Positions 2,762-25,546 of a stretch of DNA of 26,671 nt are shown in pieces. The notes under the pieces are model-generated. The model was not told the DNA's origin and did no database searches. It saw only the letters and a list, made by a program, of their open reading frames with translations. The position numbers were made by a program, and so were the translations under genes. Source of the DNA: a virus. Position 1 is the first letter of the stretch. Each line of letters starts with the position of its first letter. The stretch spans positions 1 to 26,671 of the IMG/VR virus record IMGVR_UViG_3300033146_000641. One strand, 5' to 3'.

Positions 2762-3160
2762 ATGAGTGATCCAGTGTCTAAATCTATAAGTCTTATTAAT
2801 TATATAAGTGAATCATTAATGAATGTAATCTACATTAAGGATACTAATCTTTTCCTAGATACTAGATCTAAGGATAAATTTAGTATACTCGATGATAATG
2901 ACGGATTTATATTAATAGACTACAATGGAGTTGCTTTTATACTCTATGTTAAAGATGTAACATCTATTTCTGAAGAACTCCAGATACGTCCTATGGATAA
3001 AGTATTTATCAAACCTGCTGATTGGTCTGTTGATAGACCTGATGATTTTACTGGTAAAGCAGTCGTGCTTAATATAGCTGATACTTATGACGATATGATT
3101 TCTACTTTTCCTAAGGGTGAGTTTAAATTATTTAAAATAGCTAATAATCTTAATAGTTAA
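2762..3160 (+). CDS. Unknown small protein with putative capsid-targeting N-terminus
   Basis: The 132-residue product begins MSDPVSKSISLINYISESL. From V5 onward it matches the pattern shared by several small proteins here, ending in I-S-E before S, which fits the (I/L)-x-E rule for T4-type prohead protease cleavage. V5 is encoded by GTG at 2774; starting there would give exactly 13 residues to the glutamate, as in the four clearest family members, so the real start may be 2774. The rest is beta-rich (FILIDYNGVAFILYVKD) with no known motif. It lies directly upstream of the portal gene. My inference is a small head-packaged or prohead-core protein; that is not shown. Confidence 0.75.
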   Translation: MSDPVSKSISLINYISESLMNVIYIKDTNLFLDTRSKDKFSILDDNDGFILIDYNGVAFILYVKDVTSISEELQIRPMDKVFIKPADWSVDRPDDFTGKAVVLNIADTYDDMISTFPKGEFKLFKIANNLNS

Positions 3161-3178
3161 TATCGAGAATATCATTAT

Positions 3179-4642
3179 ATGAATTTTAAAAATTTAGCTA
3201 AAGGACTCTTAGGATATCCGAAACAGGAACCTGAGGAAGTCTATAGGCAACCTGAGATAGTTAGCGATAATGGATCTACACTACTAGATGAAGAAATAGA
3301 ATTATCTATGTTATTAGATCCTGGTATTAGAAATACCATTGGTTACGGTAAATCAATCTCTAATATCATATTTGATAAAATAAATAATAAATCCGATTGG
3401 TTCAAAGCAGTAGAAGGAGTAGATGGTTCTGATTATGTTGAAAATATTCTATCTACAGTGTCTGATGATGTTCTTTATCTAGGTCATGATTCTTCCAGTA
3501 AGTTTTTTGAATTACTATTAGATGAATCTATTGAAAAAGAGTATGGAAAAGATATTAGAGAGTTCATTGATTCTTTAAATATTTTTGAATATCTTGAAGA
3601 TATGCTTACTTATATATTATTCATGGGTGAGCGTATAATCAGAATAGATTACAAAAATAAACAGATAGACGAGATATTTGGTCAGAAAGACCTCTTTACT
3701 TTGTACTCTAGGTCAGAAATGAAGATGACCTATGATAAATCTAATAATAAAGCATATAACCCACATATCTATGTTCCATTAAGATTTAAAGCATATACGT
3801 ACACTACAGGGATTAGGACTAATTCTGGTTCTATACTATATGCAAAGATAGGTAAATCTATATTTCCTAAAGGAGCTCTAGAAAGAATTAAATCTCTTAA
3901 GATATTAGAATCATTAATTCCACTCAATGAAATAGTGAATATGGATAGAAAACTATATTTCTATTTTAGAGCTCCAGCTGGTACATCTGTAAAAGATGGA
4001 TTTAGACAAGCTAGAGATTATGAGAGAATGCTATCTTCTCTACTCCAGATGGAATTTCCTTCTGATGTAGAATCTCTTATTGAGAAGACAGCTAAAGTTA
4101 AAGTTATTCCTTTATTTGGTGAGCAGAAAGATTTAGATTATAAAGAAGTGCCTAAGCCTGATAGGATAGATTCTTCAACTATTCAGGATATGAGACGCAC
4201 TCTTGCTAAATCTATAGGTGATATCCCTGCATCTGTACTCGCAGTTCCTGACGGTGATGATAAGTACTCATCTAGGTATCTTCAATTATTAAAGAAGATT
4301 AGATCTGGTCTAGCTAGATGTGTTTCATATATAGCATGGTCTTATGTGCAAAGAATAAAGGATATATACATAGATCCATCTAAGATTATCGTTAAAGTCC
4401 CATTAGTACCAGGAGCTGAAGAAGTTGAGGTTGCTGATTTTGTATCTACATTCTCTGATTCAGTGTCTAACCTAGTTAGGGTATTTGATGAATCTAATAG
4501 ATTCTTAGGTGATATACAAGAAGATGCAAATATAGATAAGAAAGAGTTAGTTGACTTCTTGAATAAGAAAGTCAAACAAGTTACTGGTAAGAATTTATTT
4601 ATTTATACGGAAAATAAAACCGATAATTCTTTTGAGGATTAA
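3179..4642 (+). CDS. Portal protein
   Basis: The portal forms the dodecameric ring at the special capsid vertex through which DNA enters and leaves, and it docks the terminase. The 487-residue length is close to T4 gp20 (524). I assign it on position between terminase and prohead protease, and on features typical of portals: a helical N-terminal wing, a long middle region with DRKLYFYFRAPAGT near residues 258-271, and the helical stretch SSTIQDMRRTLAKSIGDIP near residues 333-351, followed by PDGDDKYSSRYLQLLKKIRSG. The C-terminus is acidic. The ribosome-binding site is weak. The gene begins 18 bases after the previous stop and ends 17 bases before the protease gene, consistent with one transcription unit. 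Confidence 0.8.
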   Translation: MNFKNLAKGLLGYPKQEPEEVYRQPEIVSDNGSTLLDEEIELSMLLDPGIRNTIGYGKSISNIIFDKINNKSDWFKAVEGVDGSDYVENILSTVSDDVLYLGHDSSSKFFELLLDESIEKEYGKDIREFIDSLNIFEYLEDMLTYILFMGERIIRIDYKNKQIDEIFGQKDLFTLYSRSEMKMTYDKSNNKAYNPHIYVPLRFKAYTYTTGIRTNSGSILYAKIGKSIFPKGALERIKSLKILESLIPLNEIVNMDRKLYFYFRAPAGTSVKDGFRQARDYERMLSSLLQMEFPSDVESLIEKTAKVKVIPLFGEQKDLDYKEVPKPDRIDSSTIQDMRRTLAKSIGDIPASVLAVPDGDDKYSSRYLQLLKKIRSGLARCVSYIAWSYVQRIKDIYIDPSKIIVKVPLVPGAEEVEVADFVSTFSDSVSNLVRVFDESNRFLGDIQEDANIDKKELVDFLNKKVKQVTGKNLFIYTENKTDNSFED

Positions 4643-4659
4643 TTTTAAGAGGTACAGTC

Positions 4660-5484
4660 ATGAATTTGGATTTCTCTACTGAAGGTTTAGATTTTATTCA
4701 TGGAGAAGTATTTGAATCAGCAGTAGGTGCACTTGATTATTCAGGTACTACTATTACTGATAGTAATATCTATGAGAGTCTCCCTGAGATAGTCAATGAA
4801 TCTAAGGGTAAATCTTCAGGTGAAGTATTAGGTGTCCTAGAAGGTGTATTCTTTATGCCTAATAGCAAATCTTTTAATAAGAGATACTATTCCGAGACTC
4901 TTTGGAAGAATGTATGCAAGAGTGAGAGGGTTAAGGGTCTTTTAAAATTAGGTATGTTAGGTACTTTTGAACACCCTAATCCCAAAATTAGGTCATTATT
5001 CAATGAATCCGGTCAACCTACATTCTTTCATCCTGTCAATGCTTGTAGTATAACAAAGAAATTAACTATTGAATCACATGTAGGAGTTAAATCAGGTATT
5101 GGTAAAGCATATGTTATTGATACTCCTATAGGTAGAGTAGTTGATACTTTATTAAGATCTAAGGATGAATCTGGTAAACCATTGTGTATCTTAGCAGTAT
5201 CATCTAGAGCTTGGGCTGCTAATAAGGGTAAGACTGGTGATGGTTACGAGATTATGGATGAGAATAGGTATTATCTTGAGTCATTTGATATTACTATGTA
5301 TCCTGGTATTGCACAAGCTACTCCTGTTTATAAACCTGAGAGTGTAGATATTGTTTCTGATATATTAGATAAGATCATTAGTACTAATAGTAATAATCTT
5401 CAGTCACCTCAATATAAGATTGAATCATTTACTGAAAGTTACACTCCCAAATCTCAGTTTCTAGCTTCTCTTAGAGAAGATTAA
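4660..5484 (+). CDS. Prohead maturation protease (T4 gp21-type serine protease)
   Basis: This 274-residue protein should cleave scaffold, capsid and internal proteins inside the prohead. The catalytic motifs of the gp21/S77-like fold are visible: GTFEHP near residues 101-106 (candidate nucleophile-activating H105) and LAVSSRAWA near 178-186 (candidate catalytic S181 or S182). GVFFMPNSKSFNKRYY near 62-77 is the usual first strand and Y-rich motif. The N-terminus holds EVFES (16-20) and the C-terminus SFTES, both plausible self-cleavage sites. T4 gp21 cuts after (I/L)-x-E, and several small proteins in this window carry just such a site at residue 13. AGAGG precedes the ATG. The gene lies between portal and scaffold, as in T4-like phages. 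Confidence 0.85.
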   Translation: MNLDFSTEGLDFIHGEVFESAVGALDYSGTTITDSNIYESLPEIVNESKGKSSGEVLGVLEGVFFMPNSKSFNKRYYSETLWKNVCKSERVKGLLKLGMLGTFEHPNPKIRSLFNESGQPTFFHPVNACSITKKLTIESHVGVKSGIGKAYVIDTPIGRVVDTLLRSKDESGKPLCILAVSSRAWAANKGKTGDGYEIMDENRYYLESFDITMYPGIAQATPVYKPESVDIVSDILDKIISTNSNNLQSPQYKIESFTESYTPKSQFLASLRED

Positions 5485-5700
5485 ATATTACTAACTTTCT
5501 CTGTTGCTAATAGAGTAAGTTGTTGACATATAAGTACATTAGTGATTAGACGTTGTTGTTTAGTCACTGTTGTCTGAGTCGCTCACAGACAATGTTATCT
5601 CGAAATTATGAAAATATCGAATAGAGTGTAAAATACAAATTATTGAATAAATCGAAAATTGACCACTGTTAAATTAAATATAAATTGGAGGTAATTAGTT
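5485..5700 (+). other. Structured leader upstream of the scaffold gene
   Basis: This 216-base gap has no ORF worth calling. It holds three hairpins in a row: 5493-5502 with 5512-5521 (one mismatch), 5541-5551 with 5558-5568 (11 bp, two G-U pairs, GTTGTT loop), and TTGTCTG 5570-5576 with CAGACAA 5586-5592. A TATAAGTA box at 5529-5536 resembles a T4 late promoter, and a TATAAATT lies about 15 bases before the scaffold ATG. The leader precedes the two genes expected to be most highly expressed, so it may hold a promoter and mRNA-stabilising or processing structures. Confidence 0.5.
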
Positions 5701-6219
5701 ATGGATAAGGAAACCATGGAAAAATTGATTAAGGAGAAAGACGCTCTTGAATCAATGATTAAAGGTCTTGATGAAAAAGTAGCAGCTTATGAAGCTTTAG
5801 GTACTCCTGAAGAGATTTCATCAGCTTTTGCTAAGACTGAGGGTCTGCTGTCTTCATTGGAAGATCTGGGTAGCATAGAAGATATCAATCGTGCTCTAGA
5901 TTTGTCTCGTAGTACTCTTGAATCTTATGTTGCTATCGGGACTCCTGAACAGATTACTGAGTCACTGAAGGGAGCTGCTGATTTTCGTGCAACTGTTGAA
6001 TCAGAAAACCTGTCTCGTGAATTCGGTATTGATATCGGGGTAGCACGTAAGATGATTGATGCTCATGAAACTTTTGATAAAGCTAAGGAAATGCTGTCTG
6101 GTCTTCTGAGTAAGAAAGATAGTGCTAATGAATCAACCAAAACTACTGGTGAGGAAGTAGATCCTCCTGTAGGTAGTAAAGTTGCTGGTCGTATTTCTAA
6201 TATGGCTAGAAATCTTTAA
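5701..6219 (+). CDS. Prohead scaffold (core) protein
   Basis: The 172-residue, highly acidic and helical protein lies between the protease and the major capsid protein, the standard place for the scaffold (T4 gp22 position). It starts with a coiled-coil-like stretch (ETMEKLIKEKDALESMIKGL). Then come three degenerate repeats of about 35 residues marked by ALGTPEEI (36-43), DLGSIEDI (55-62) and AIGTPEQI (78-85). The tail is flexible and basic (KVAGRISNMARNL), as expected for a segment that contacts capsid protein. GGAGG precedes the ATG. Arginine is almost always CGT, unlike most neighbours, which suggests selection for high expression. Several E-S pairs (ALES, TLES, TVES) could be protease sites. 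Confidence 0.75.
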   Translation: MDKETMEKLIKEKDALESMIKGLDEKVAAYEALGTPEEISSAFAKTEGLLSSLEDLGSIEDINRALDLSRSTLESYVAIGTPEQITESLKGAADFRATVESENLSREFGIDIGVARKMIDAHETFDKAKEMLSGLLSKKDSANESTKTTGEEVDPPVGSKVAGRISNMARNL

Positions 6220-6237
6220 TATAGGAGGGATTTAGAT

Positions 6238-7677
6238 ATGAGTTTAAATATTGAAAAACGTCTTGAATATGAAGCAGAATCATATCGTCGTGATTATGGC
6301 TCACTTATTGAGCAAGTCGGTGAGGAAATGGAAACTCGGTATGAAGGTCGTTATTCCTTCAGTACTTTTGATGAGGTAGCTCTCGGTCGCTATGCTCAAA
6401 CTTGGGAAAGTTTCCTTCCTGTCTTTGAATCTGATATGACCTCACGTGATAGCCTGGGTGATATTCTGAAAGTAGGTTTGGACTTGGTTGCTCTACAGTA
6501 TGCCACTCTACCTATTCAGCATCTTGCATCAGTACAGCCTCTATCTGAGGAAGCTGGTGTTGTTTATTATCGTCGTGCTATCGCTACTTCTGATCGTGCT
6601 GGTATCTCTAAAGGTGACATCCTTCTGAATTCTACTGGTAAGTTAGGTGCTGGTCTACCTGATTACGCATCAGAAGAAATTATTGATGAGTCACAAAGTA
6701 TTGTTGATAATGGTGGTAACCCATCAGCTGGTCCATATACTTTTGCTCTACCTGCTCCTATTCGTAGTAGGACTCTCAATATTAATATTGCTGGTAAGAT
6801 CAAAGGTATCGATGATGGTGACGGTCATATCTTTGGTGTAGGTATTGACCCTGACAACTCCAGTATCGATTATGAGACTGGTGCTGTAGTTGTTGTTTTG
6901 ACTGATCCAGTTGGTTCTGGCTTAGCTATTGGTGATACTATCACTATTATCTTCTCTCAGAATCTTGTTAGTTCAACTGAGATTCCTGGATTTCGTTATG
7001 ACTTAGTTGGTAAGGTCATGACTGTTAAGTATCATCTCTTACAGTCCCAGTATTCTTCTCTGGCTAATTATGTAGTTAAACGTCGTTTCGGTAAGACTCT
7101 GTCTGAAGATGTCGCTCGTGATGCTGTAGCTCAGATTAACGGTGCTGTTCTCATGTCAGCTATTAAGAAACTACGTACTGCTGCTATTAAGAATGAAACT
7201 AATTATAGTTTCTCAACTCTTAGTTGGGCAGGTGTAGCACCTTCTGGTGTATCTGATATTGATCATCGTCGTACTTTTACTGATTTGGCTGAGACTGCTG
7301 CTTCTAAGATTGAAGATATGTCTGGTCGTTCAGCGATTACTTTCATGATTATAGGTCAGACTGCTCGTCAGATTTATAGTTCACTTGGTTTTAAGGGTGA
7401 ACGTAAAGCTGTGCCTGGTCCATATCTGGCTGGTTATTTTGAAGGTGTTCCTGTCTATTATGCTCCTCTGTCAGTTCTCCCTGCTAATGAAGTCCTTTAT
7501 GGTTATCGTGGTTTACAGTGGTTTGAGAGTCCTTTGGTTTATGGGCCATTCCTGCCTACTACTGTAGTTAAGACTGCTGGTAATCCTAATGTCTTCTCTG
7601 AAGCTTATGGAGTTGCTCATGGTGCAGCTATGGATAGTGTAGTTCCTGAGTTTGTTGTTCGTGGTAAGATTACTTGA
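6238..7677 (+). CDS. Major capsid protein
   Basis: A 479-residue protein directly after protease and scaffold, with a very strong AGGAGG site and expression-type codon use (CGT for Arg, CTG/CTT for Leu). The C-terminal two thirds read as a HK97-fold capsid protein: ATSDRAGISKGD near 116-127, KYHLLQSQYSSLANY near 264-278, RSAITFMIIG, and the late GVPVYYAPL and YGPFLPTT stretches. Residues of about 165-243 form an extra beta-rich domain with DDGDGHIFG and SSIDYETGAV; a closely similar domain occurs in the tail sheath protein of this phage. The N-terminal 60-70 residues are probably removed on maturation, and PVFE-S at 61-65 is one candidate site. A strong terminator follows. Confidence 0.88.
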   Translation: MSLNIEKRLEYEAESYRRDYGSLIEQVGEEMETRYEGRYSFSTFDEVALGRYAQTWESFLPVFESDMTSRDSLGDILKVGLDLVALQYATLPIQHLASVQPLSEEAGVVYYRRAIATSDRAGISKGDILLNSTGKLGAGLPDYASEEIIDESQSIVDNGGNPSAGPYTFALPAPIRSRTLNINIAGKIKGIDDGDGHIFGVGIDPDNSSIDYETGAVVVVLTDPVGSGLAIGDTITIIFSQNLVSSTEIPGFRYDLVGKVMTVKYHLLQSQYSSLANYVVKRRFGKTLSEDVARDAVAQINGAVLMSAIKKLRTAAIKNETNYSFSTLSWAGVAPSGVSDIDHRRTFTDLAETAASKIEDMSGRSAITFMIIGQTARQIYSSLGFKGERKAVPGPYLAGYFEGVPVYYAPLSVLPANEVLYGYRGLQWFESPLVYGPFLPTTVVKTAGNPNVFSEAYGVAHGAAMDSVVPEFVVRGKIT

Positions 7678-7693
7678 TAGTAATTAGTTCCTC

Positions 7694-7740
7694 AGCTGTA
7701 GTGGGTATAGTTTAGTTATGCCCACTACAGCTTCTTTATT
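7694..7740 (+). terminator. Rho-independent terminator after the capsid gene
   Basis: AGCTGTAGTGGG (7694-7705) pairs perfectly with CCCACTACAGCT (7721-7732). The stem extends about four more pairs around a small TTTAG loop. A T-rich tail (TCTTTATT) follows. Confidence 0.8.
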
Positions 7741-7752
7741 ATTGAGTTAAAT

Positions 7753-7760
7753 TATAAATA
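7753..7760 (+). promoter_or_regulatory. T4-type late promoter box
   Basis: An exact TATAAATA, the T4 late promoter consensus, lies 37 bases before the ATG at 7798 and just after the capsid terminator, where a new transcript would have to start. Confidence 0.5.
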
Positions 7761-7797
7761 TTATTTATAGTTTAATTGAATTGTAAGGGAAATCATT

Positions 7798-8587: not shown

Positions 8588-8959
8588 ATGAGTAAGTCAT
8601 CAAGTTTAATTAAATTAATTGAGGAATCAGTTAATAATGATATTCGAAATATCATACGTAGTGTTAAAACTATGGAAGAAATGCTAAAGAAAAATTATGA
8701 TGATGATTATGAAGATATTGTCGGTAATATTTTATATGATATAGCTGATGAGTCACCAGTCACTGAATTGAAAGATGAACGTGGTCAGAAACTGGGTAAA
8801 CCTGATAGTAAATTAAAATCAATTATTAAGAAGATAACAAGTTCATTAAAGAAACTGCCATCAGGTAACTTATCAATATTTGCTCACGAAATTGCCAAAA
8901 TCTATGGTATAGGAGAAAGAGAATTAGGCGATGGATTCTCTGGATGGGATAACTGGTAA
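8588..8959 (+). CDS. Unknown small protein with putative capsid-targeting N-terminus
   Basis: The 123-residue product begins MSKSSSLIKLIEESV. I-E-E before S at residues 11-14 fits the (I/L)-x-E cleavage rule of T4-type prohead proteases, with the glutamate at residue 13 as in three other proteins here. The remainder is mostly helical and charged and ends GDGFSGWDNW. It has AGGAGG before the ATG and its own late-promoter box, so it is probably well expressed late. A strong hairpin follows the gene. I do not recognise a family; head-packaged cargo or a core protein is my inference from the N-terminus. Confidence 0.75.
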   Translation: MSKSSSLIKLIEESVNNDIRNIIRSVKTMEEMLKKNYDDDYEDIVGNILYDIADESPVTELKDERGQKLGKPDSKLKSIIKKITSSLKKLPSGNLSIFAHEIAKIYGIGERELGDGFSGWDNW

Positions 8960-9096: not shown

Positions 9097-9729
9097 ATGA
9101 ATAAATCAAAAGAAATATTACGTTTTATTGCTGAAGCAAAATTGCCTAAGGAAATTGCTAGGGAATTTAAATTTGCTCCCTTCTTATTTCCAGACGATAA
9201 GTTGTCTATTAAAGCTATTGCTCAGAATCCTGAAAGATCTTATGAAGACAGAGAAGTATATACAGAATTTAATTTTTCTAAGAAACCTTTAGATGGAAAA
9301 ATTATTAATAACCAATATTCAACTTGGTTAACTGGTGAGAAATCAATTGAATTAGGGACTATGTTAATAGAAGCTGGTAATGATGCTCTCACTAGGAGTA
9401 GACTTAAGAATTATGAAACTATTGAATTACTAGCTGCAGCTAATTCAGCTCAGAGGGGATTATATAAAGAAGTCATTATTACTCGGCAGAATGATGAAAC
9501 CCCAAATGACTATGGACCTGGGTTTTACTATTATACTTTTTATTATAAAGCAGATGATGATCTATATTCAAGAAAGATAAAGGATGTAGTTTATTATTTT
9601 TCTCCATTTAAGGATGAATTCAATAAGCAGATAAAGAATTTTACTTTTGGTATCCCATATAAATTAGTTAATTTTAGTTATGATTTAATCAAATCTAAAT
9701 TTGATAAATCTAGTAAAGATTTTGAGTGA
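9097..9729 (+). CDS. Unknown protein (210 aa) with putative capsid-targeting N-terminus
   Basis: It begins MNKSKEILRFIAEAKLPKE. F-I-A-E before A closely resembles the cleaved leader of T4 internal proteins (a short peptide ending near FIAEA), and the glutamate is residue 13. The mature part is mixed alpha/beta and rich in Tyr, Phe and Lys, with YGPGFYYYTFYYK near residues 138-150 and a basic C-terminus (DLIKSKFDKSSKDFE). At 210 residues it is the largest member of the set. I recognise no enzyme motif. Position among small genes after the capsid protein and the leader suggest an internal head protein. Confidence 0.72.
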   Translation: MNKSKEILRFIAEAKLPKEIAREFKFAPFLFPDDKLSIKAIAQNPERSYEDREVYTEFNFSKKPLDGKIINNQYSTWLTGEKSIELGTMLIEAGNDALTRSRLKNYETIELLAAANSAQRGLYKEVIITRQNDETPNDYGPGFYYYTFYYKADDDLYSRKIKDVVYYFSPFKDEFNKQIKNFTFGIPYKLVNFSYDLIKSKFDKSSKDFE

Positions 9730-9738
9730 GATAAATAA

Positions 9739-10056
9739 ATGAAATTAAATTCCCTTAACACACTACTGCAGATTGGGAAAGTAATTAATGCTCGTGATTA
9801 CAATCTAGTACTAGATGGAGATCTTAAACCATCTAGGAATACTTATAGACTACTCAGTCGTAGTAATAAAGAATTAGGTATCATAGAATTACATAATGAT
9901 TACCTCCGAGTATTAAAAGGTAAAGATACTAAGATATTTAAAAATGATATAAAATCAAATAGCGATATCATTGAATTAGTAGATAATATTATAAAATATA
10001 TGAATGAAACAATGGCTAATTCAATTATTAATAAAATAGAAGGAGTTGTCAAATGA
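9739..10056 (+). CDS. Unknown small protein (105 aa)
   Basis: The ORF begins MKLNSLNTLLQIGKVINARD and lies 9 bases after the previous stop. Its stop overlaps the start of the next gene by four bases (ATGA), which suggests translational coupling. The N-terminus is a short amphipathic helix, loosely like the other small proteins but without an L-x-E site. The middle reads as beta hairpins (NKELGIIELHNDYLRVLKGK). I do not recognise a family. Confidence 0.65.
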   Translation: MKLNSLNTLLQIGKVINARDYNLVLDGDLKPSRNTYRLLSRSNKELGIIELHNDYLRVLKGKDTKIFKNDIKSNSDIIELVDNIIKYMNETMANSIINKIEGVVK

Positions 10057-10496
10057 GTGTTTATTTCAAAGGCAGGAATATGTCGGAAAAGGAATATTTA
10101 GAAGCACGTAAGAGGGATCAAGAAGAGTATCTGAAAATCCTTAATAGTAAACCTGGAAATCCTGTTATTCCCAGCAATGACACTGATGAAGTCAAGACTG
10201 ATGAAGTTAAGACTAATGAAGCTGATACTAATGAAGTCAAGACTGATGAAGTTGGTACTAATGAAGTCAAGACTGATGAAGTTGGTACTAATGAAGTCAA
10301 GACTGATGAAGTTGGTACTAATGAAGTCAAGACTGATGAAGTTGGTACTAATGAAGTTGAATACACCTCAGATCAAATATATGATATGCGGAAGGATGAA
10401 CTTATTGAATTAGCTTCTAAATTAGAGATTGATTCTGAAGGTTATAAAGAAGAACTTCAAAAGAGAATTATCAATCATCTTGGTTTAGCAGTCTAA
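10053..10496 (+). CDS. Pentapeptide-repeat linker protein with C-terminal SAP-like domain
   Basis: The 147-residue protein has three parts: a charged helical N-terminus (1-43, EKEYLEARKRDQEEY); twelve tandem pentapeptides of the form T-D/N-E-V-K/G (about 44-103), acidic and probably extended; and a C-terminal SAP/HeH-like helix-extended-helix (about 108-147, MRKDELIELASKLEID then EELQKRIINHLG). SAP-type modules usually bind DNA or sit in nucleic-acid proteins. AAGGAG precedes the start, which overlaps the previous stop by four bases. The nearly perfect 30-nt repeats make copy-number change likely. YLE-A at 16-19 is a possible protease site. Function unknown; a DNA-tethering role in head or host is conceivable. 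Confidence 0.72.
   Translation: MSVYFKGRNMSEKEYLEARKRDQEEYLKILNSKPGNPVIPSNDTDEVKTDEVKTNEADTNEVKTDEVGTNEVKTDEVGTNEVKTDEVGTNEVKTDEVGTNEVEYTSDQIYDMRKDELIELASKLEIDSEGYKEELQKRIINHLGLAV
10182..10361 (+). repeat. Tandem 15-nt repeat, 12 copies (30-nt higher-order unit)
   Basis: Twelve in-frame 15-base units encode T-D/N-E-V-K/G. The middle eight form four near-identical 30-base copies (TNEVK-TDEVG), pointing to recent expansion. The array also opens a meaningless reading frame on the other strand. Confidence 0.9.
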
Positions 10497-10763: not shown

Positions 10764-11093
10764 ATGAGTAAATCTAAAGAACTGTTGGATTTCTTAAATG
10801 AATCAGTATTGGTATCAGAATTTTCTAGAGACACTAAATTATCTTTTGAATCGTCATTAAAAACTATTTTTGAAGATAATGATCTATATTCAATCTCAGG
10901 TGATAAAGATAAATTCATTATCAGCAGTGATGGTTATTCATTATCAGTACGTCCATCTGAGAACATAGGTATGGTTATCATTATGAGAGAAGATGGTGAA
11001 GAAGAAGAGATTCCATTTGCTGATCTCTTTAAAACTGTAGATACTGAAGTTAAAGCATTGAATAAATCAGAAGTTACTAGTGATGAGATATAA
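10764..11093 (+). CDS. Unknown small protein with putative capsid-targeting N-terminus
   Basis: It begins MSKSKELLDFLNESVLVSEF. L-N-E before S at residues 11-14 fits the prohead protease rule and again places the glutamate at residue 13. The mature part is acidic, with a predicted beta segment (DKFIISSDGYSLSVRP, then MVIIMREDGEEEEIPFADL). No family recognised. It is followed after three bases by the probable neck gene at 11097. AAAGGCG precedes the start. Confidence 0.75.
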   Translation: MSKSKELLDFLNESVLVSEFSRDTKLSFESSLKTIFEDNDLYSISGDKDKFIISSDGYSLSVRPSENIGMVIIMREDGEEEEIPFADLFKTVDTEVKALNKSEVTSDEI

Positions 11094-12162: not shown

Positions 12163-12636
12163 ATGAAATTCAAAAGAATATTTATATTAATAATCCTGAT
12201 TTCCGCATGTAGGATTGCCTACGCTGACAATTTATTGATTACACCTAGGCAGATAGTTGATAATTCCAGAACTAATGTCATGGTATCCCTTATAGGATAT
12301 TATCCTGCATTTATTTATCATGTTGTAGATGGTGATACTGTAGATGCAGTAGTACGTATTGGTTTTGAGTTTATCACATATAAGAGATTCAGGATATATA
12401 ATCTTGATACTCCTGAGACATGGAGGCCATCCTGTGATGCTGAAAGAATTCATGGTGAAAAAGCTAAAGAGGAAGCTAAGAGATTATTACTGAATAAATA
12501 TCTTATTATCCGTACTGGATTTGATCAAGGATACTATTGTAGAGAATTAGCTGATATCTACTTACCTGATGGAACTAATTATAGCGATTATATGAAAGCT
12601 AATGGGTTCTCCAAGAGAAATAATTATAAGCAATAA
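12163..12636 (+). CDS. Exported staphylococcal-nuclease-type (SNase) enzyme
   Basis: The 157-residue protein has an N-terminal export signal: basic MKFKR, hydrophobic IFILIILISA, then either a lipobox (ISAC, C16) or a signal peptidase I site after AYA (residue 21). The mature part carries the SNase/thermonuclease active site: VVDGDT at 54-59 (D56, D58), R77 in FRIYNLDTPE with D82, T83 and E85, and R127 in CRELADIYLPDG. These match SNase D19/D21, R35, D40, T41, E43 and R87, so it should be a calcium-dependent DNase/RNase. C91 and C126 could form a disulfide outside the cytoplasm. It lies among probable neck genes, an odd place for a secreted nuclease. Confidence 0.85.
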   Translation: MKFKRIFILIILISACRIAYADNLLITPRQIVDNSRTNVMVSLIGYYPAFIYHVVDGDTVDAVVRIGFEFITYKRFRIYNLDTPETWRPSCDAERIHGEKAKEEAKRLLLNKYLIIRTGFDQGYYCRELADIYLPDGTNYSDYMKANGFSKRNNYKQ

Positions 12637-13767: not shown

Positions 13768-13986
13768 ATGTGCAAATCTAAACAGATTTTAGATCTTATA
13801 AGTACTCTTGAGAGCAGGGAACCTACTGAAAGTGAATTAAAGAGATTTAAAAAAGCTGCATCTAGGATGGTGGATGAAATAGAAAAAAGAAGAAATGCTG
13901 GTGATTACACTGAAGAGGAAAGAGCTGATTTAGAAGAAATATTTTATGATAATATGGTTAAGATGGTGAGAGGCGAAATAGATTAA
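13768..13986 (+). CDS. Small helical protein (72 aa), leader-like N-terminus
   Basis: It begins MCKSKQILDLISTLESREP, close to the shared pattern but two residues longer before E-S, so it fits the strict (I/L)-x-E rule poorly. The rest is charged helix (SELKRFKKAASRMVDEIEKR) and ends KMVRGEID. AGGATAGGA precedes the ATG. Function unknown. Confidence 0.65.
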   Translation: MCKSKQILDLISTLESREPTESELKRFKKAASRMVDEIEKRRNAGDYTEEERADLEEIFYDNMVKMVRGEID

Positions 13987-18649: not shown

Positions 18650-21589
18650 ATGTTTAAAATTTCTTTTCAAGATATTAAGGATGTAATTAGCTCTAGTTCT
18701 TCAGATAAGAATAATCTCTTAGAAATTAGGGATGAATTAGCTTCCTTATTCTCTTCTATAGAAGTTAATACAGAGATACTAAGATCATATGAGACTAGTG
18801 TATCTAATAATTTTTCTCAGATTAGAGAAGATCTACAGGAGAAGGGTTATTCAGAAAGTGATATAGATGATATAATAGAAGAATTTTCTAATGGATTCGC
18901 TGAGATAAAAGGATTAAAGGACAAATTTAATAAGTTATCTGATAAATTTGAAAATCGTGATTCTATTGATAGACGGGAAGCTGAAACTCTTATTAGTTAT
19001 ACTGAGAAGACAGCTAAGATATTAGAGAAGCTCCCCAAGAATATTGCTTTAAAAATATCCTTAGATGATATATTTAAGAAGCAAGCTGAGTTTTTATCAT
19101 CAGATTTGCCTAAAGAGGTAAGAAGACAGGCTTTAATAGAAATTATCTCTTATTTAAAAACATCTAGTGATACTGATAAAGAGACTATTAAATTCATGAA
19201 GGATATTTCTGATAATACAGAGATATCTGATAGAGATTTTAATGCAGTTTCAAATAAGTTAATTGAGATATCTAATGATAAAGATAATAATACTTCAATT
19301 TCTGTTAAGGAATTAACTAATAGATTTGATCACTCTACTAAGACTTCTGAGCAGATTAAAGATATCCTAGATAAACAGAATACTAAATTTGGATCTTCTA
19401 TTAAAGAAGCATTCTTAAGTAAGTCATCTGAAATATCTACTGCTACTTTGACTAAAGGATTGGGTCAGGGACTTATGGGAGCATTTGGTCCTATAGGTAT
19501 TATAGCTGATCAAATGTTTGGTATATCTGATAGGCTGTCATCAGTAGGTGATGTTGTTACTAATAAATTATTAGATAGCTCCAAGTCATTATTATCTAAT
19601 ATAGCTAGTAAAGCAAAGGATAAGATAGGACTAGGTTCAAAAGAGAGTGAAACTAGTGATGTATCTAAATCTAATATTGTTGATAGCTCTAAATCATTAT
19701 TATCTAATGTAGTTAGTGAGACTAAGAGTAAGTTAGGATTAGATTCTAAGGAGTCTACCAGTGATATATCTGAATCTAAATCATTACTATCTAGTATAGC
19801 AAGTAAGACTAAGAGTGTATTAGGATTAGATTCGAAAGAAACTATTAGAGATAATACTAAATTTGACACTAGCAACATAGCTGAATCTAACACTATTGAT
19901 AGTTCAAAGTCATTATTAACTAACACAGCTGATAGAACTAGTGATAAGTCAGAATTAATATCAAAAGAAAGTATTAGTGAGAGTGCTAAATCATTATTAT
20001 CCAGTGTTGCTAATAAAGCTAAGAGCAAATTAGGTTTAGATTCTAAGGAGTCTACCCGTGATATACCTGAATCTAAATCATTACTGTCTAGTATAGCAAG
20101 TAAGACTAAGAATGTATTAGGATTAGATAATAAAGAAATTACCAGTGATGTTTCTAAATCTAATATTATTGATAGTTCTAAATCTTTATTATCCAATGTA
20201 GTTATCGAGACTAAGGATAAAGTAGGGTTAAATAGCAATTTTGATTACAGTAACCCTGTAAATAAAAGTAATGAGATAAATCAGATTATCAATGATGAAA
20301 ATAGTGTATTATCACAGAAATTAATATCTAATACTGAATCTATTGAAGATCTAACTAATATTATTAAGAAAGAGAATAGACGAGATAGAGTATTAGATAA
20401 GAAAGATAGAAAAAGAGATATAGAACAGCATGAAGAATTAATTGAAAATGTTGATGATTTAGAAAGATTATCTAAGAAGAATCTTAAAGCCACAAAGGGT
20501 ATCGATGTAGAAGGCGGTGGAGGATTCTTTAGTTCTTTCCTAGGGAATATATTAGGAAATTCAAAAATAGGAAAATTGATAAGTAAAGTCCCTGGTGGTA
20601 AGACTGCAACTAAATTACTTAGTAAGATACCTGGTGTAGGTAAATTATTAGGTGGTGCTGCTGAGGGAGTCTTGGGCACTGCAGCTGAGGGAGCATTAGG
20701 TGCTGGTGCTGAGGGTTTAGCAGGTGGAGGGTTATTATCAACAGTTGGTGGTCTTGCGTTACCTGCATTAGCTGTGACTGCTGCAGGTGCAGCTGGGTAT
20801 GGAATAGGGACTTTAATAACTAAGACTACAGGTAGCGATAAATTAGGCGGTAAGATTTATGATTTAATACATGGTAAGGAAGATAAGAATGCAGGTTTAG
20901 CTACTGATTCTAGTATTCAGAAATATGCAGCCACTGAATTATCCCCTGCAGCAGCTGATAAATATCTTAAAGAATTTAAAGTAGGTGGACCAACTTTTGA
21001 TGACATGGTTGCTGATGGTAAATTAGTTTATGATTCAGCCACTTCTAAATATTATTTACCAGATGAGATTAATACTGAATCTAAGATAGCTGATATAGCA
21101 TCTAAAGCTCAGAATCCTAGTGTTCCTAGTAAGTCACCTACCTCTAGTAAACCATCTAACATAGAGACTGCCAATAAATCATCTTCTACAACTAATACTG
21201 ATATTTCTAATAACTCCTCTATATCTAATACTAACACCTCAAGTGAATCACCTGAGGTAACTAATACAGAGATTTCTAGTGAATCATCACCTATACCTAG
21301 TAGTGCTCCATTAGCTAGTACAGAGGCCAGCTCTTCTAATATTACTAGTATTGATAGCTCAGTTAATAATTTTAAGAGTTCAAGTATGTCTAAGGAGGTA
21401 TCTCCTGATACTTATACTAATATTCAAAAAGAATTAGTGAAGGCTAAGACCGTAGAAGTTAAACATGTTCCTAATAATGCTAATTTAAGACCAGCTTCAA
21501 TGCCTCATGCAGCAACTAAAACACCTGCACCTTCACCTATAGTAATGGATGATCTTGGTCTTATAATGGTTAATTCAGGGTTATTTTAA
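18650..21589 (+). CDS. Tape measure protein
   Basis: At 979 residues this is the longest gene here and sits in the tape measure position. At about 1.5 angstrom per residue it would set a tail near 145 nm. The N-terminal 300 residues are helical and charged; residues about 309-530 hold seven degenerate repeats of the form DSSKSLLSNxASKxKxKLGL; about 625-735 are a Gly/Ala-rich hydrophobic stretch (GGAAEGVLGTAAEGALGAG) suited to membrane insertion on ejection; about 800-900 are a low-complexity Ser/Thr/Asn linker. There is no lytic motif. The ribosome-binding site is weak. The stop overlaps the next start (TAATG). Confidence 0.85.
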   Translation: MFKISFQDIKDVISSSSSDKNNLLEIRDELASLFSSIEVNTEILRSYETSVSNNFSQIREDLQEKGYSESDIDDIIEEFSNGFAEIKGLKDKFNKLSDKFENRDSIDRREAETLISYTEKTAKILEKLPKNIALKISLDDIFKKQAEFLSSDLPKEVRRQALIEIISYLKTSSDTDKETIKFMKDISDNTEISDRDFNAVSNKLIEISNDKDNNTSISVKELTNRFDHSTKTSEQIKDILDKQNTKFGSSIKEAFLSKSSEISTATLTKGLGQGLMGAFGPIGIIADQMFGISDRLSSVGDVVTNKLLDSSKSLLSNIASKAKDKIGLGSKESETSDVSKSNIVDSSKSLLSNVVSETKSKLGLDSKESTSDISESKSLLSSIASKTKSVLGLDSKETIRDNTKFDTSNIAESNTIDSSKSLLTNTADRTSDKSELISKESISESAKSLLSSVANKAKSKLGLDSKESTRDIPESKSLLSSIASKTKNVLGLDNKEITSDVSKSNIIDSSKSLLSNVVIETKDKVGLNSNFDYSNPVNKSNEINQIINDENSVLSQKLISNTESIEDLTNIIKKENRRDRVLDKKDRKRDIEQHEELIENVDDLERLSKKNLKATKGIDVEGGGGFFSSFLGNILGNSKIGKLISKVPGGKTATKLLSKIPGVGKLLGGAAEGVLGTAAEGALGAGAEGLAGGGLLSTVGGLALPALAVTAAGAAGYGIGTLITKTTGSDKLGGKIYDLIHGKEDKNAGLATDSSIQKYAATELSPAAADKYLKEFKVGGPTFDDMVADGKLVYDSATSKYYLPDEINTESKIADIASKAQNPSVPSKSPTSSKPSNIETANKSSSTTNTDISNNSSISNTNTSSESPEVTNTEISSESSPIPSSAPLASTEASSSNITSIDSSVNNFKSSSMSKEVSPDTYTNIQKELVKAKTVEVKHVPNNANLRPASMPHAATKTPAPSPIVMDDLGLIMVNSGLF
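19574..20240 (+). repeat. Seven degenerate repeats in the tape measure gene
   Basis: Units of about 27-41 codons begin SKSLLS and carry K-x-x-LGLDSKES. Units 2 with 3 and 5 with 6 are nearly the same pair, so a block of about 125 codons seems to have duplicated. Confidence 0.8.
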
Positions 21590-22155: not shown

Positions 22156-22174
22156 TATGTGGTTTAAATAATAT
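22143..22174 (+). repeat. 16-bp tandem duplication at a gene junction
   Basis: GTGGTTTAAATAATAT occurs twice in a row at 22143-22158 and 22159-22174. The first copy holds the stop of the upstream gene and the second leads into the ATG of the next. Confidence 0.9.
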
Positions 22175-22580
22175 GAGTAGCAAACCTAATGAAAGATTTG
22201 GTTTAATAGAATATGGAAAGATATATAAATCTAAGTTTCCTGAGAAGTTTCAGAGGATTTCTGAAAGAAGATTAGCTTATGATTTTGATCCTGATAAATT
22301 AAAAGATTATAATTATCTATTATCTAGATTTAATCAGGAATTTTTTAAACTTCCATATTTTATTAGGGAAATTAGCCGGTCAGATGTTGGTAGACCTGAT
22401 TTAATATCTTATGAAGTATACGGTGATACTGATTTCTGGCATTATATATTATTATTTAATAGCATAGCTGATCCAATTAACGGTTTAGTGAAAGGCACTG
22501 ATATTAAGATACCTATGCTTGATCATTTATCTAATTGGTTAATCGAAAATTTACTTCATGATACTAAGACAGGTGTATAA
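22173..22580 (+). CDS. Baseplate wedge protein, gp53-like
   Basis: The 135-residue protein has the marks of the gp53 family: an N-terminal segment on positions and rigid loops (ERRLAYDFDPDKLKDYNY), then the key motif YGDTDFWHYILLFNSIADP near 84-102, followed by a short end with KGTDIKIP. It joins wedges around the hub in T4-like baseplates. Its stop and the next start overlap by one base. Confidence 0.7.
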   Translation: MSSKPNERFGLIEYGKIYKSKFPEKFQRISERRLAYDFDPDKLKDYNYLLSRFNQEFFKLPYFIREISRSDVGRPDLISYEVYGDTDFWHYILLFNSIADPINGLVKGTDIKIPMLDHLSNWLIENLLHDTKTGV

Positions 22581-23668
22581 TGTTAGGGAAAAAGGGTCAA
22601 TGGGCTTTAACTATAAACGGTGATGAGATATTAGGTGAAGAACTTATTTTCCTTAATATATTTGAAGATGCTGGACTTAATCTTCCTACTTTTGATTTAT
22701 TATTTTATACTGATGATGAAGAAAAAGTTAAGAGGTGGAATTCACCTGGATATCCTGCAAAGATAGGATTTGGAGTTGATGAAATAGTAGATGTGACTGA
22801 TTTTAAAGTTTTCTCCAGGGAAGTCTCATCTATTGGTGGTGCTGATCAATGGGCTGTCAATGCTAAAGGCATATATGATAGTTTAGATTATGTTAATTCA
22901 CAAAGATTGCTTACTTTCAATACTTGGGGAGATATGAAGAAGAGCAGTGAGGTATTCTCTGCTGTTGCTTCTAAGAATGGTTTTAAACCAGATGTTCCTA
23001 TGCCATCTAATGATATGATGCTATGGACACAACATAATGTCACTGATAGAAAGTTTCTAGAAGAAGTAACATGGCATGGATATTTCTCTTCTAATGATCC
23101 TCCATTGACTGCATTCCGTAAAGATGGTAAAGCTATTTATAAACCCCTCTCTAAAATAATACAATCTGAAAAGGGAATTATAGGTAATAGTGAAGACGCA
23201 AGTATAATAAGTAATCACTTTACCCTTGTAAATAGGGAAGGATTCTTATCTTCTTGGTCAGGAAATATCAGAACTGTTCCTTATCATCATTCTGAAAAAG
23301 GTATCGATGATAATTGTAAAGGAAGTGTTACACCTAAGGTTGTCAAAGAAGCTGGTCTTACTCCAGAGGTAAATAAGTTTCAAGAAATAGAATTACTTAA
23401 TGATAATGTGCATGATAATTGGTGGGTAGCTTATAGACAGAATAAACAGTTTAAAGCATCTTTATCGTCACAGTCAATAAGGACAACAGTAGATGCCTAT
23501 AATTCGATATTCCCTCTTGATTATTACAGGACTAAATTCTTGAGGCAGGATGATAAAACTATATTAGAACCTTATGCTGGTAAATGGATAGTGAATACTG
23601 TAGTAACTAGTGTTAAGAATTCTGCATTTACACAATTTATTACTTTATGTAGAGAAACTTTATTATAG
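22580..23668 (+). CDS. Baseplate hub protein (gp27/gpD-like)
   Basis: The 362-residue protein reads as a central hub: a first beta barrel (LGEELIFLNIFEDAGLNLPT, then DLLFYTDDEEKV), the DFKVFSREVSSIGG strand pair, the helical SSEVFSAVASKNGF, the W-containing NVTDRKFLEEVTWHGYFSS typical of gp27/VgrG-like hubs, and a late barrel ending ITLCRETLL. It should form the trimeric ring that carries the spike encoded at 24429. The two are separated here by a small gene and the gp25-like gene. Confidence 0.7.
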   Translation: MLGKKGQWALTINGDEILGEELIFLNIFEDAGLNLPTFDLLFYTDDEEKVKRWNSPGYPAKIGFGVDEIVDVTDFKVFSREVSSIGGADQWAVNAKGIYDSLDYVNSQRLLTFNTWGDMKKSSEVFSAVASKNGFKPDVPMPSNDMMLWTQHNVTDRKFLEEVTWHGYFSSNDPPLTAFRKDGKAIYKPLSKIIQSEKGIIGNSEDASIISNHFTLVNREGFLSSWSGNIRTVPYHHSEKGIDDNCKGSVTPKVVKEAGLTPEVNKFQEIELLNDNVHDNWWVAYRQNKQFKASLSSQSIRTTVDAYNSIFPLDYYRTKFLRQDDKTILEPYAGKWIVNTVVTSVKNSAFTQFITLCRETLL

Positions 23669-23677
23669 GAAAGTATT

Positions 23678-23923
23678 ATGAAAGCAAAGAAATTATTGAA
23701 TATGTTAGAAAGTTTAAAATTTGATGAAGCTTATGCTATATTAGATGGTGATGATAAGTGGATGATGTCAAGTGTAGATACACCTATTTGGTTTAGAGAT
23801 AAGAAAATGGCAGATAAAACTGCCAAAAATAATAATAGGTTTACCCATGTAGTAAAAGTTAAATTAAAAAGGAATCCTGCTGCTTATAATGGATATTCTA
23901 TACTACATGTAATAGAGGATTAA
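23678..23923 (+). CDS. Small unknown protein (81 aa), leader-like N-terminus
   Basis: It begins MKAKKLLNMLESLKFDEAY, similar in plan to the shared leader but with M-L-E before S, so a weak match. The rest reads as a compact beta/alpha protein (DKWMMSSVDTPIWFRDKKMA, then FTHVVKVKLKR). It is inserted between hub and gp25-like genes, where T4-like phages usually have none. AGGA precedes the ATG. Function unknown. Confidence 0.65.
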   Translation: MKAKKLLNMLESLKFDEAYAILDGDDKWMMSSVDTPIWFRDKKMADKTAKNNNRFTHVVKVKLKRNPAAYNGYSILHVIED

Positions 23924-23926
23924 TTT

Positions 23927-24304
23927 ATGTTTTCTAAGGATTCAATAAAATGGATTGATCTTGCTAGATCAGCAGGTGAAATTAAAGTAGAGGGTTCTGA
24001 AGCAGTACAGAATGCTATTGATAATATACTTTCAGTACAACCTGGGGAAAGATTATTTAAACCTAAGTTTGGCTGTAATTTAGAAAGTTTATTATTTGAG
24101 CCTATTGATGACACTACATCTGAGTTAATACGTATTGAATTATACAATTGTGTAGAGAATAATGACCCAAGAATTAGTGTCATTCCTTCTCAGACTACTG
24201 TTATTCCTAGTCCAGATGAATATAGATATGATATTAATTTAGCTGTAGAGGTATTAGGCATAGGTGATGCTAATTTTAAATTTTCTTTAAAAGCATTTGG
24301 ATAG
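23927..24304 (+). CDS. Baseplate wedge protein, gp25/gpW-like
   Basis: The 125-residue protein carries the gp25 family signature: NAIDNILSVQPGERLFKPKF near 29-48, then GCNLESLLFEPID, which is the usual PGER-x-x-x-P-x-FG and LFEP motif. This protein is the core wedge subunit conserved in contractile tails and type VI secretion (TssE). GAGG precedes the ATG. The last residues end just before the repeated intergenic elements. Confidence 0.88.
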   Translation: MFSKDSIKWIDLARSAGEIKVEGSEAVQNAIDNILSVQPGERLFKPKFGCNLESLLFEPIDDTTSELIRIELYNCVENNDPRISVIPSQTTVIPSPDEYRYDINLAVEVLGIGDANFKFSLKAFG

Positions 24305-24309
24305 GATTT

Positions 24310-24344
24310 TATAACTCTCAGCTGATTACGTTTTCCTTTTAAAG
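24310..24344 (+). promoter_or_regulatory. Dispersed 35-nt intergenic element (copy B)
   Basis: It begins TATAACTCTCAGCTGATTAC and ends CCTTTTAAAG, differing from copy A (2684-2718) at only three positions. A hairpin, AAAGAGGA 24341-24348 with TCCTCTTT 24359-24366, starts at its end, as a hairpin also follows copy A. Confidence 0.6.
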
Positions 24345-24383
24345 AGGAAAGAATTGTATCCTCTTTGGCACTACATAACATTT

Positions 24384-24417
24384 TATAACTCTTAGTTAAT
24401 TACGTTTTCCTTTAAAG
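24384..24417 (+). promoter_or_regulatory. Dispersed 35-nt intergenic element (copy C)
   Basis: It starts TATAACTCTTAGTTAATTAC and ends TTTAAAG, one T shorter than B and 74 bases downstream of it. It ends 11 bases before the ATG of the spike gene at 24429, so it may act as its promoter or leader. Confidence 0.6.
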
Positions 24418-24428
24418 AAGAATGATTT

Positions 24429-25163
24429 ATGCCTCTCTTTGATACACTATCAGATGTACAGATATATAAATCATTTGGATCTGGGTTTAGGCTCTTCTGG
24501 GGTAAAGTCATATCGAATGAAGATCCTAAACTCTTAGGGCGTATTAAAGTACAAATTAAAGAGTTATTACCATGGGATGATAAGAAAAAGTTATTATGGA
24601 TATACCCTTTATATCCTGCTGGTTTAGGTGAGTCTCCCCTTACTACTAATTTTCAGGTTCCTGAAGAAGATTCCTACGTAATCTGTATATTTCCTCATGA
24701 TTCAATATATTTTGGATTTTATGTTTGGCATACTACTGATAGACTGAGAAGACTTATGGATTTTGAATCTGAGTACCCAGAGAGATTTGGGTGGCAGGAT
24801 TCAAGAGAAAATAAGTTTATAGTTAATAAAGATCCTAATATAGATTCAGTGGAACATAGGTATGCTGATGGGACTTTATCTATACATGATTCTAAACGCT
24901 CTGGATATGAGTATAGGGATAAGTACGGAACTGAGATTTATGTAAATAGGAAAGATCAGTATATTGAGATTAAATTTGCTGAAGTCAATATCAGTATCCA
25001 TAAGGGTATTCTAAATATAGATTTAAACTCCATTCATATAACAGCAACTTCTATAGCTAAGCTTATCGTTATGGGAGCAGTCAGTGTTACTACGCCTATA
25101 GTGTTATTATGGTCTAAGATTGTAAGTAAGTTTTTTAATGAGAAACACGATACTAAATTATAG
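24429..25163 (+). CDS. Baseplate spike protein (gp5/VgrG-type OB fold, no lysozyme)
   Basis: The 244-residue protein starts with a gp5-like OB domain: GRIKVQIKELLPWDDKK near 38-54, then ESPLTTNFQVPEEDSYVICI near 68-87 and IYFGFYVWHTTD near 93-104. It then has a middle linker and a C-terminal beta-rich needle-like part (YRDKYGTEIYVNRKDQYIEI, then NISIHKGILNIDLNSIHI). It should form a trimeric needle on the hub. The T4 gp5 lysozyme domain is missing, so cell wall lysis must lie elsewhere if it occurs in this tail. Confidence 0.75.
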   Translation: MPLFDTLSDVQIYKSFGSGFRLFWGKVISNEDPKLLGRIKVQIKELLPWDDKKKLLWIYPLYPAGLGESPLTTNFQVPEEDSYVICIFPHDSIYFGFYVWHTTDRLRRLMDFESEYPERFGWQDSRENKFIVNKDPNIDSVEHRYADGTLSIHDSKRSGYEYRDKYGTEIYVNRKDQYIEIKFAEVNISIHKGILNIDLNSIHITATSIAKLIVMGAVSVTTPIVLLWSKIVSKFFNEKHDTKL

Positions 25164-25174
25164 TTGAGAAGAAA

Positions 25175-25546
25175 ATGAATAAGTCAATTAGTTTACTTGA
25201 GTTAATTCTTGAATCAGTAATAAGAAGAATACCTGATGATGTTGTGAAAATTCTTCAGGGTTCTGATTTTAATATGGGGCCAAATGGTAACCATAATATA
25301 TTAGCTGAGAAAGACGGGAAGAATATTAAATTAAAATTCCCTGTATTTAAAGAAAACGATAAAAATATTAAAATGTATATAGAAGATTGGACTAGTGGGA
25401 ATGGTGCATATGCTAGTTATTTCTTAGATGAATTTAATATATCTTTTAAATTAAAAAGTTTTAAGTTTATTAATAAGAAACTATTTGATTACCCTGCCTA
25501 TTATGAAATAATCTTATCTGTTTTAAAAATAAATAATGGATCCTAA
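25175..25546 (+). CDS. Unknown small protein with putative capsid-targeting N-terminus
   Basis: It begins MNKSISLLELILESVIRRIP. I-L-E before S at residues 11-14 fits the prohead protease rule, with the glutamate again at residue 13, although the gene lies among baseplate genes, far from the head genes. The rest of the 123 residues reads as alpha/beta (DGKNIKLKFPVFKENDKNIK, then a basic aromatic end). GAGAAG precedes the ATG. The stop overlaps the next gene by 11 bases. I do not recognise a family. Confidence 0.75.
   Translation: MNKSISLLELILESVIRRIPDDVVKILQGSDFNMGPNGNHNILAEKDGKNIKLKFPVFKENDKNIKMYIEDWTSGNGAYASYFLDEFNISFKLKSFKFINKKLFDYPAYYEIILSVLKINNGS

What the first reader, a model, noticed from the sequence alone, without database searches (positions are those of the whole stretch)
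2762..25546. A family of unrelated small proteins shares a 13-residue capsid-targeting-like leader ending at a prohead protease site
Proteins starting at 2762, 8588, 9097, 10764 and 25175 have nearly the same N-terminus (for example MSKSKELLDFLNE-S, MNKSKEILRFIAE-A, MNKSISLLELILE-S), but their remaining sequences look unrelated. All five end in (I/L)-x-E before S or A, the known cleavage rule of T4 gp21, and the window encodes a gp21-type protease. In four the glutamate is residue 13. Weaker versions start at 2250, 11821, 13768 and 23678. In T4, such peptides send internal proteins (IPI, IPII, IPIII, Alt) into the prohead and are then removed; IPI is ejected and blocks a host restriction enzyme. 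The inference is that this phage packages a set of small cargo proteins, perhaps anti-defence effectors.
Basis: partly seen in the sequence, partly recalled or inferred. Interest (0 to 1): 0.85.

Follow-up and report, generated by a model that had tools for sequence, protein, structure and literature searches.

The report
Shared address tag on phage cargo proteins
A fragment of a large bacterial virus encodes several different small proteins that begin with the same short tag ending at a predicted cutting site of the virus's own head-assembly enzyme, which suggests that the virus uses one removable address label to load a set of proteins into its particle, much as phage T4 does.

Summary
Five proteins (2762, 8588, 9097, 10764, 25175) share the leader [M/V][SN]KSxx(L/I)(L/I)x(L/F/Y)(I/L)xE|(S/A). 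Conservation falls away just after the glutamate, and the bodies show no convincing similarity. A motif-free comparison of 36 called genes finds 9 similar N-terminal pairs against 0.18 expected, and adds 13768 and 2250; 11821 and 23678 are not supported. The window encodes a gp21-type protease, and the capsid protein keeps a (L/I/V)-x-E|(A/S) site in 8 of 8 proteins aligned. The main new evidence comes from relatives. Yersinia phage YerA41 has its own leader family (MSRISxLNxKFE|A/S), mostly beside terminase and portal. Five of its 6 members bear the label 'structural protein' in the record of a phage whose virions were analysed by LC-MS/MS; one is a RimK-type enzyme. Cobetia phage Carin-5 has MSKAKELLEKME|A and similar starts. 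Best reading: T4-style capsid-targeting propeptides on head-internal proteins of a distant clade. Docking, cleavage and ejection are inferred, not shown. No body matches a known family, so anti-defence is unsupported.

The parts
8588..8959 (+). 123-aa protein; leader MSKSSSLIKLIEE (8588-8626), predicted cut before S14
   Evidence: Body: no Pfam match above cut-off, no tblastn match in phages at E up to 1
9097..9729 (+). 210-aa protein; leader MNKSKEILRFIAE (9097-9135), predicted cut before A14; same FIAE|A as T4 IPII/IPIII
   Evidence: body without match
10764..11093 (+). 109-aa protein; leader MSKSKELLDFLNE (10764-10802), predicted cut before S14
   Evidence: body without match
25175..25546 (+). 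123-aa protein; leader MNKSISLLELILE (25175-25213), predicted cut before S14
   Evidence: body without match
2762..3160 (+). 132-aa protein; leader MSDPVSKSISLINYISE (2762-2812), or VSKSISLINYISE from a GTG at 2774; predicted cut before S18
   Evidence: body without match
13768..13986 (+). 72-aa protein with a related start, MCKSKQILDLISTLE|S
   Evidence: Matrix p 5e-5; joins the motif-free cluster
2250..2606 (+). 118-aa protein with a related start, MSKAAKLIETFE|N (P1' not A or S)
   Evidence: Matrix p 0.003; joins the motif-free cluster; similar to Carin-5 204 (blastp E 8e-5)
2084..2164 (+). 26-residue ORF with a leader-like start, MSKANDIINLIDNS; perhaps the remnant of a cargo gene
   Evidence: matrix p 5e-5
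4660..5484 (+). gp21-type prohead protease, the enzyme proposed to remove the leaders
   Evidence: PHROG 207 E 1.8e-15; 5jbl E 2.8e-5 with a 5-row profile; H105 and S181 invariant in alignments of 4 and 5 proteins (their catalytic role is recalled, not tested)
6238..7677 (+). gp23-type major capsid protein; predicted maturation site PVFE64|S65
   Evidence: Pfam Gp23 above cut-off; P61, E64 and D66 invariant and P1' A or S in 8 of 8 proteins aligned
5701..6219 (+). likely scaffold (core) protein, by position between protease and capsid protein; proposed docking partner of the leaders
   Evidence: Position; only a sub-threshold PHROG scaffold hit, E 0.097

Best explanation
The leader is a T4-type capsid-targeting propeptide. 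During prohead assembly the N-terminal helix of each precursor docks on the scaffold core. The gp21-type protease then cuts after the glutamate, at the same kind of site as in the major capsid protein, and the freed bodies stay in the head with the DNA and probably enter the next host. Shown by computation: the shared leader, the fall of conservation after P1', the protease, the conserved capsid site, and a parallel leader family in a relative whose members are mostly labelled virion proteins. Inferred: docking on the core, cleavage, ejection, and what the bodies do.
For: Leader far beyond chance. Conservation falls at P1' both here and in four YerA41 carriers. gp21-type protease and a capsid-protein site of the same rule in 8 of 8. 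YerA41: second leader family, 5 of 6 carriers labelled 'structural protein' (P 0.001 on 40 of 213 labels; 0.009 on the paper's 63 particle proteins), including a RimK-type enzyme far from the head block; its cryo-EM shows internal capsid proteins (passages). Carin-5 MSKAKELLEKME|A ranks first of 227 genes under the window's matrix. T4 internal proteins and gp24 show the same layout (ipII and ipIII MKTYQEFIAE|A, gp24 MAKINELLRE|S).
Against: No mass-spectrometric N-terminus was seen. Within the late stretch of YerA41 alone the label association is P 0.07, and one carrier, 210, is not labelled. The YerA41 leaders do not stand out under the window's matrix (best one fifth, p 0.014), so common descent of the two leader types is not shown. 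The stretches read of phiLo and Rhizobium TM30 have no leader cluster, and the total pair count for YerA41 does not exceed its null (16 pairs, null maximum 16). In T4 the rule with E at 11-17 is at chance (1 of 67, expected 0.98; with E at 9-18 it is 7 of 67, expected 1.9). YerA41 particles hold polymerases and helicases, few of which can bear this leader, so it is not the only way in.
Confidence: 0.77

Rival explanations
1. The leader is a docking helix that stays attached: the carriers are minor head, neck or core parts that bind one common partner and are not cut.
For: The carriers lie among head and tail genes, and docking alone explains a shared helix. No cleavage has been observed.
Against: The invariant glutamate with S or A after it, the fall of conservation there, and the same rule in the capsid protein fit cutting better. 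One YerA41 carrier is an enzyme far from the head block.
Confidence: 0.13
2. The carriers are paralogues of one old gene family whose N-terminus is conserved and whose remainder has diverged beyond recognition; the leader is only what is left of common descent.
For: Weak residual similarity of two pairs of bodies, E 0.04. Identical residues use the same codon more often than codon usage predicts (37 of 64 against 25.9).
Against: Body lengths run from 72 to 210 residues; other pairs show nothing below E 0.04 without the leader; a RimK-type enzyme carries the YerA41 leader. Paralogy would not by itself explain a conserved protease site.
Confidence: 0.07
3. On top of the capsid-targeting reading: the delivered bodies are anti-defence effectors, as T4 IPI is.
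For: T4 IPI precedent (PMC9026906, passages) and the P1 DarB precedent (PMC9024508, passages). The bodies have no phage homologues found, as one might expect of fast-turnover genes.
Against: No body has a Pfam match above cut-off or a credible PADLOC match among nine tested (one HTH hit at 0.0065). The review says that the roles of IPII and IPIII remain unsolved. Core or DNA-organising roles are equally open.
Confidence: 0.22

Closest known systems
T4 internal proteins IPI, IPII, IPIII (and Alt) with their capsid targeting sequence and protease gp21
   Same: Short N-terminal leader on otherwise different small proteins, ending in (I/L)-x-E before A or S (rule in PMC9026906, passages); gp21-type protease; 9097 even has FIAE|A as IPII and IPIII do
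   Different: Leader of 13 rather than 10 residues with its own consensus (KS at 3-4); at least 5 to 7 carriers in 26.7 kb; carriers lie inside the head and tail block; bodies unrelated to known internal proteins
Leader-bearing proteins of Yersinia phage YerA41 (205, 206, 208, 209, 210, 066) and Cobetia phage Carin-5 (037, 112, 120, 195, 204)
   Same: Same clade by capsid protein; leader ending in E before A or S; the YerA41 family and the window genes 2250 and 2762 lie between terminase and portal
   Different: Most leaders there are 12 residues with a hydrophobic residue just before E (KFE, KYE, KME); bodies differ; not described as leaders in the papers looked at
Prohead-protease propeptides of giant phages (phiKZ, SPN3US)
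   Same: Head proteins cut after glutamate by a distant gp21 relative (PMC9026906 and PMC10052503, passages)
   Different: Mostly long propeptides (111-254 residues in SPN3US, two short ones), no leader shared by many proteins
P1 DarB capsid targeting signal
   Same: An N-terminal signal sends a protein, and a reporter, into the head
   Different: One 251-kDa protein; no shared leader family described in the passages seen

Membership tests
T4-type capsid targeting sequence (CTS) | Short N-terminal leader shared by different small proteins | tested here: met
T4-type capsid targeting sequence (CTS) | Leader ends at a prohead-protease site, (I/L)-x-E before A, S or G | tested here: met
   5 of 5 strong leaders; 13768 and 2250 deviate
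T4-type capsid targeting sequence (CTS) | Genome encodes a gp21-type protease and its capsid protein has a site of the same rule | tested here: met
T4-type capsid targeting sequence (CTS) | Carrier proteins are found in virions | tested here: inconclusive
   No data for this phage. In YerA41 5 of 6 carriers are labelled 'structural protein'; Table S2 of PMC7354516 was not read
T4-type capsid targeting sequence (CTS) | Leader is removed in the prohead | not testable with these tools
   Needs N-terminal or semi-tryptic mass spectrometry
T4-type capsid targeting sequence (CTS) | Leader alone is enough to package a foreign protein | not testable with these tools
   Needs a fusion experiment
T4 internal protein family (IPI and relatives) | Mature part related to a known internal or anti-defence protein | tested here: not met
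   No Pfam match above cut-off or credible PADLOC match; no tblastn match in phages at E up to 1 for the five strong carriers

The most novel reading that the evidence does not exclude
A clade of large T4-type myophages (this phage, YerA41/GN1, Carin-5) uses a rapidly varying, removable address tag as a general loading code: any gene that gains the tag joins the injected proteome. A genome may then carry many tagged genes, among them enzymes such as the YerA41 RimK/protease-like protein and perhaps the Carin-5 protein annotated as RNA ligase (MSKADELNKQLE|T). The tag would let one read the injected repertoire of uncultured phages from sequence alone.
Probability: 0.35. Interest if true: 0.75.

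Novelty: new variant of a known kind. Interest (0 to 1): 0.6.

Why it matters
Which phage proteins enter the host with the DNA is rarely known and usually needs virion proteomics. A recognisable leader would allow head cargo to be predicted from sequence in phages that have never been grown. It also offers phage-specific tags for loading proteins into heads, and marks a short list of small unknown proteins worth testing for early takeover, head assembly or counter-defence roles.

Tried and rejected
Close relatives: none found. The capsid-protein scans of viral contigs gave 0 and then 5 loci, phiLo-like with GC 0.475-0.54 and no leader seen by eye among the longest-ORF starts listed; genome contigs gave 0. 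The leader DNA pattern gave 4 stretches in viral contigs, none at the start of a called gene. A relaxed form gave 10 stretches: 2 show the same reading frame open for 188 residues from MNKSWRLLMAISE|A, 3 are an in-frame internal Met of a 354-360-residue ORF, 5 open frames of 40 residues or fewer. The YerA41-type pattern gave 0. The 11 genome-contig matches, one per contig stretch, were not inspected one by one.

AlphaFold of 9097 (mean pLDDT 38) and of the protease with 5 rows (mean pLDDT 34) are unusable; no fold search was made. Chance as the source of the leaders was rejected. A recent DNA-level duplication was judged unlikely, since the bodies do not match, although same-codon use is above expectation.

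Rows dropped: the YerA41 regex scan listed 10 starts, 8 of them annotated CDS starts. From these 8 I left out CDS 006 (NYE|G) and the capsid protein when counting 5 of 6; with both in it is 6 of 8, P 7e-4 by labels and 0.009 by 63 particle proteins. The leader rule for that scan was written after reading 205-210, so only 066 is an out-of-sample carrier. In Carin-5 many further starts match the loose regex; I kept those with K[FYM]E[AS] (5 of 227, expected 0.26, a motif chosen after seeing them). GN1 was read only to 50 kb, where 5 starts repeat YerA41 leaders. Of T4 only 60-110 kb was read, of phiLo 45-95 kb, of Rhizobium TM30 170-207.6 kb. Gene sets come from my own simple caller, except T4 (annotated starts). 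That caller missed YerA41 210.
Full report
What is there. The window is the whole held record of a 26,671-base virus fragment, 32% GC. It carries a T4-type head and tail block on the + strand: terminase (257-2070, in two frames), a portal-position gene (3179), a gp21-type protease (4660), a likely scaffold (5701), a gp23-type capsid protein (6238), the tail sheath (14569) and further tail and baseplate genes (protease and capsid protein, sheath, the others by position or by eye). The nearest relatives by capsid protein are Thermus phage phiLo, Cobetia phage Carin-5 and Yersinia phages GN1 and YerA41, at 39-44% identity.

The leader. Five proteins start with [M/V][SN]KSxx(L/I)(L/I)x(L/F/Y)(I/L)xE|(S/A). 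Columns 3, 4 and 13 are invariant. The mean pairwise BLOSUM score is 2.8 at P1', 0.7 and 0.2 at the next two columns, and mostly below zero from residue 17 on (exceptions 25 and 26). The leaders use different codons at 27 of 64 identical residues; same-codon use is above expectation (37 against 25.9), so some shared ancestry at the DNA level is possible. With the leader removed, the bodies show nothing better than E 0.04 among nine proteins compared.

Chance. Four tests agree: the DNA pattern against shuffles (4 against 0 in 100); [IL]xE[SA] at residue 13 against internal pseudo-starts (4 of 36 against 0.11, P 5e-6); leave-one-out matrix scores (each of 5 above all 79,619 null segments); and a motif-free comparison (9 pairs against 0.18, maximum 2 in 200 draws). 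The last recovers ipI, ipII and ipIII in T4 as a positive control, together with one ORF that is not an annotated gene. It finds no leader cluster in the stretches read of phiLo (1 pair, null 0.47) and Rhizobium TM30 (0 pairs). For YerA41 it lists the leader trio 205, 208, 209, but the total of 16 pairs does not exceed the null maximum of 16; for Carin-5 it finds 26 pairs (null mean 7.4, maximum 15) in 21 clusters, two of which hold leader-type starts of the kind discussed.

Protease and site. The protease matches PHROG 207 (E 1.8e-15) and, as a 5-row profile, the solved T4 gp21 (5jbl, E 2.8e-5); the Pfam S77 match (E 0.029) is below its cut-off. The capsid proteins of 8 phages or contigs, this one included, share P-(L/I/V)-(hydrophobic)-E|(A/S)-D at E64. 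T4 gp23 has FLTE|A in its N-terminal part; that this is its cut site is recalled, and the two were not aligned. So the rule used for the leaders is one that this clade's main substrate appears to keep.

Relatives. In YerA41 the small genes on either side of the terminase gene carry a second leader, MSRISxLNxKFE|(A/S). A scan of its whole genome found one more carrier far away, 066, with a RimK-type ATP-grasp domain (E 3.7e-37) and a C-terminal Zn_protease-family domain (E 1.1e-6). The YerA41 paper marks a 'ribosomal protein modification protein' as particle-associated (Table 3); I equate it with 066 from its place beside ribonucleotide reductase. Five of 6 carriers are labelled 'structural protein'; 40 of 213 CDS bear that label by my count. 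P is 0.001; 0.009 if the paper's 63 particle proteins are used; 0.07 within the late stretch alone. That the labels rest on the LC-MS/MS is inferred: section 3.3 reports 63 particle proteins, but Table S2 was not read. The cryo-EM paper describes internal capsid proteins on the inner wall of the head (PMC9023294, passages). Carin-5 has five starts with K(F/Y/M)E|(A/S). One of them, MSKAKELLEKME|A, ranks first of 227 under the window's matrix (p 9e-5), while the best YerA41 leader ranks fifth (p 0.014). A common function is therefore better supported than a common ancestor of the two leader types.

Mechanism. In T4 the first ten residues of IPIII suffice for incorporation; residues 4 and 7 matter for targeting, 8 and 10 for processing (PMC9026906, passages). 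The window leader has the same layout: an N-terminal half with invariant KS and hydrophobic residues 7 and 8, then the (I/L)-x-E|(S/A) site. I read it as docking on the scaffold core, cutting by the 4660 protease, and retention of the bodies in the head. Docking, cutting and ejection are inferred.

What the bodies do is unknown. The five strong ones have no tblastn match in phages at E up to 1, no Pfam match above cut-off and only one sub-threshold PHROG hit (8588, E 0.064); nine carriers and candidates have no credible PADLOC match. Anti-defence is possible by precedent but has no support of its own here.

Novelty. Capsid-targeting leaders are known from T4, and DarB of P1 has a targeting signal. 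New here are a different leader on more carriers in a distant clade and its link to labelled virion proteins of YerA41. I found no description of it in paper searches (listings) or in term look-ups in the two YerA41 papers; most subscription papers are not held. Passages of PMC10052503 and PMC5694885 on giant-phage propeptides were also seen.

Noticed in passing
window 257-712 and 928-2070: The large terminase is split over two overlapping reading frames, whereas YerA41, Carin-5 and phiLo have one ORF of 616-625 residues. It may be a sequencing error or a real frameshift.
   Followed up: partly
window 2675-2716, 24301-24342, 24375-24416: Three similar 42-base copies in or at the edge of intergenic gaps, sharing TATAACTCT and CGTTTTCCTTT; perhaps a phage promoter or regulatory element.
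   Followed up: no
window 2168-2192 and 2627-2651: A 25-base inverted repeat (88%) flanks the gene at 2250-2606, and the 26-residue leader-like ORF at 2084 ends just before its left arm; perhaps an inserted cassette.
   Followed up: no
window 10053-10496: A protein with an imperfect tandem repeat of 15 and 30 bases, coding TDEVKTNEVG-like units.
   Followed up: no
window 18650-21589: The long tape-measure-like ORF holds a diverged tandem repeat of about 108 bases.
   Followed up: no
window 12163-12636: A protein with a hydrophobic start that by eye resembles a staphylococcal-type nuclease (recalled motif, no search made).
   Followed up: no
L018:29211-30632 (YerA41_066): A leader-bearing protein that combines a RimK-type ATP-grasp domain and a Zn_protease-family domain (PF05618) and is labelled a virion protein.
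   Followed up: partly
L021:16128-16613 (Carin-5 043): A protein annotated as RNA ligase starts with the leader-like MSKADELNKQLE|T (matrix p 0.002).
   Followed up: no
L026:4531 and L028:1446 (minus strand): In two other viral contigs a frame open for 188 residues starts MNKSWRLLMAISE|A after a ribosome-site-like AAGGA; possibly the same type of leader in another phage.
   Followed up: no
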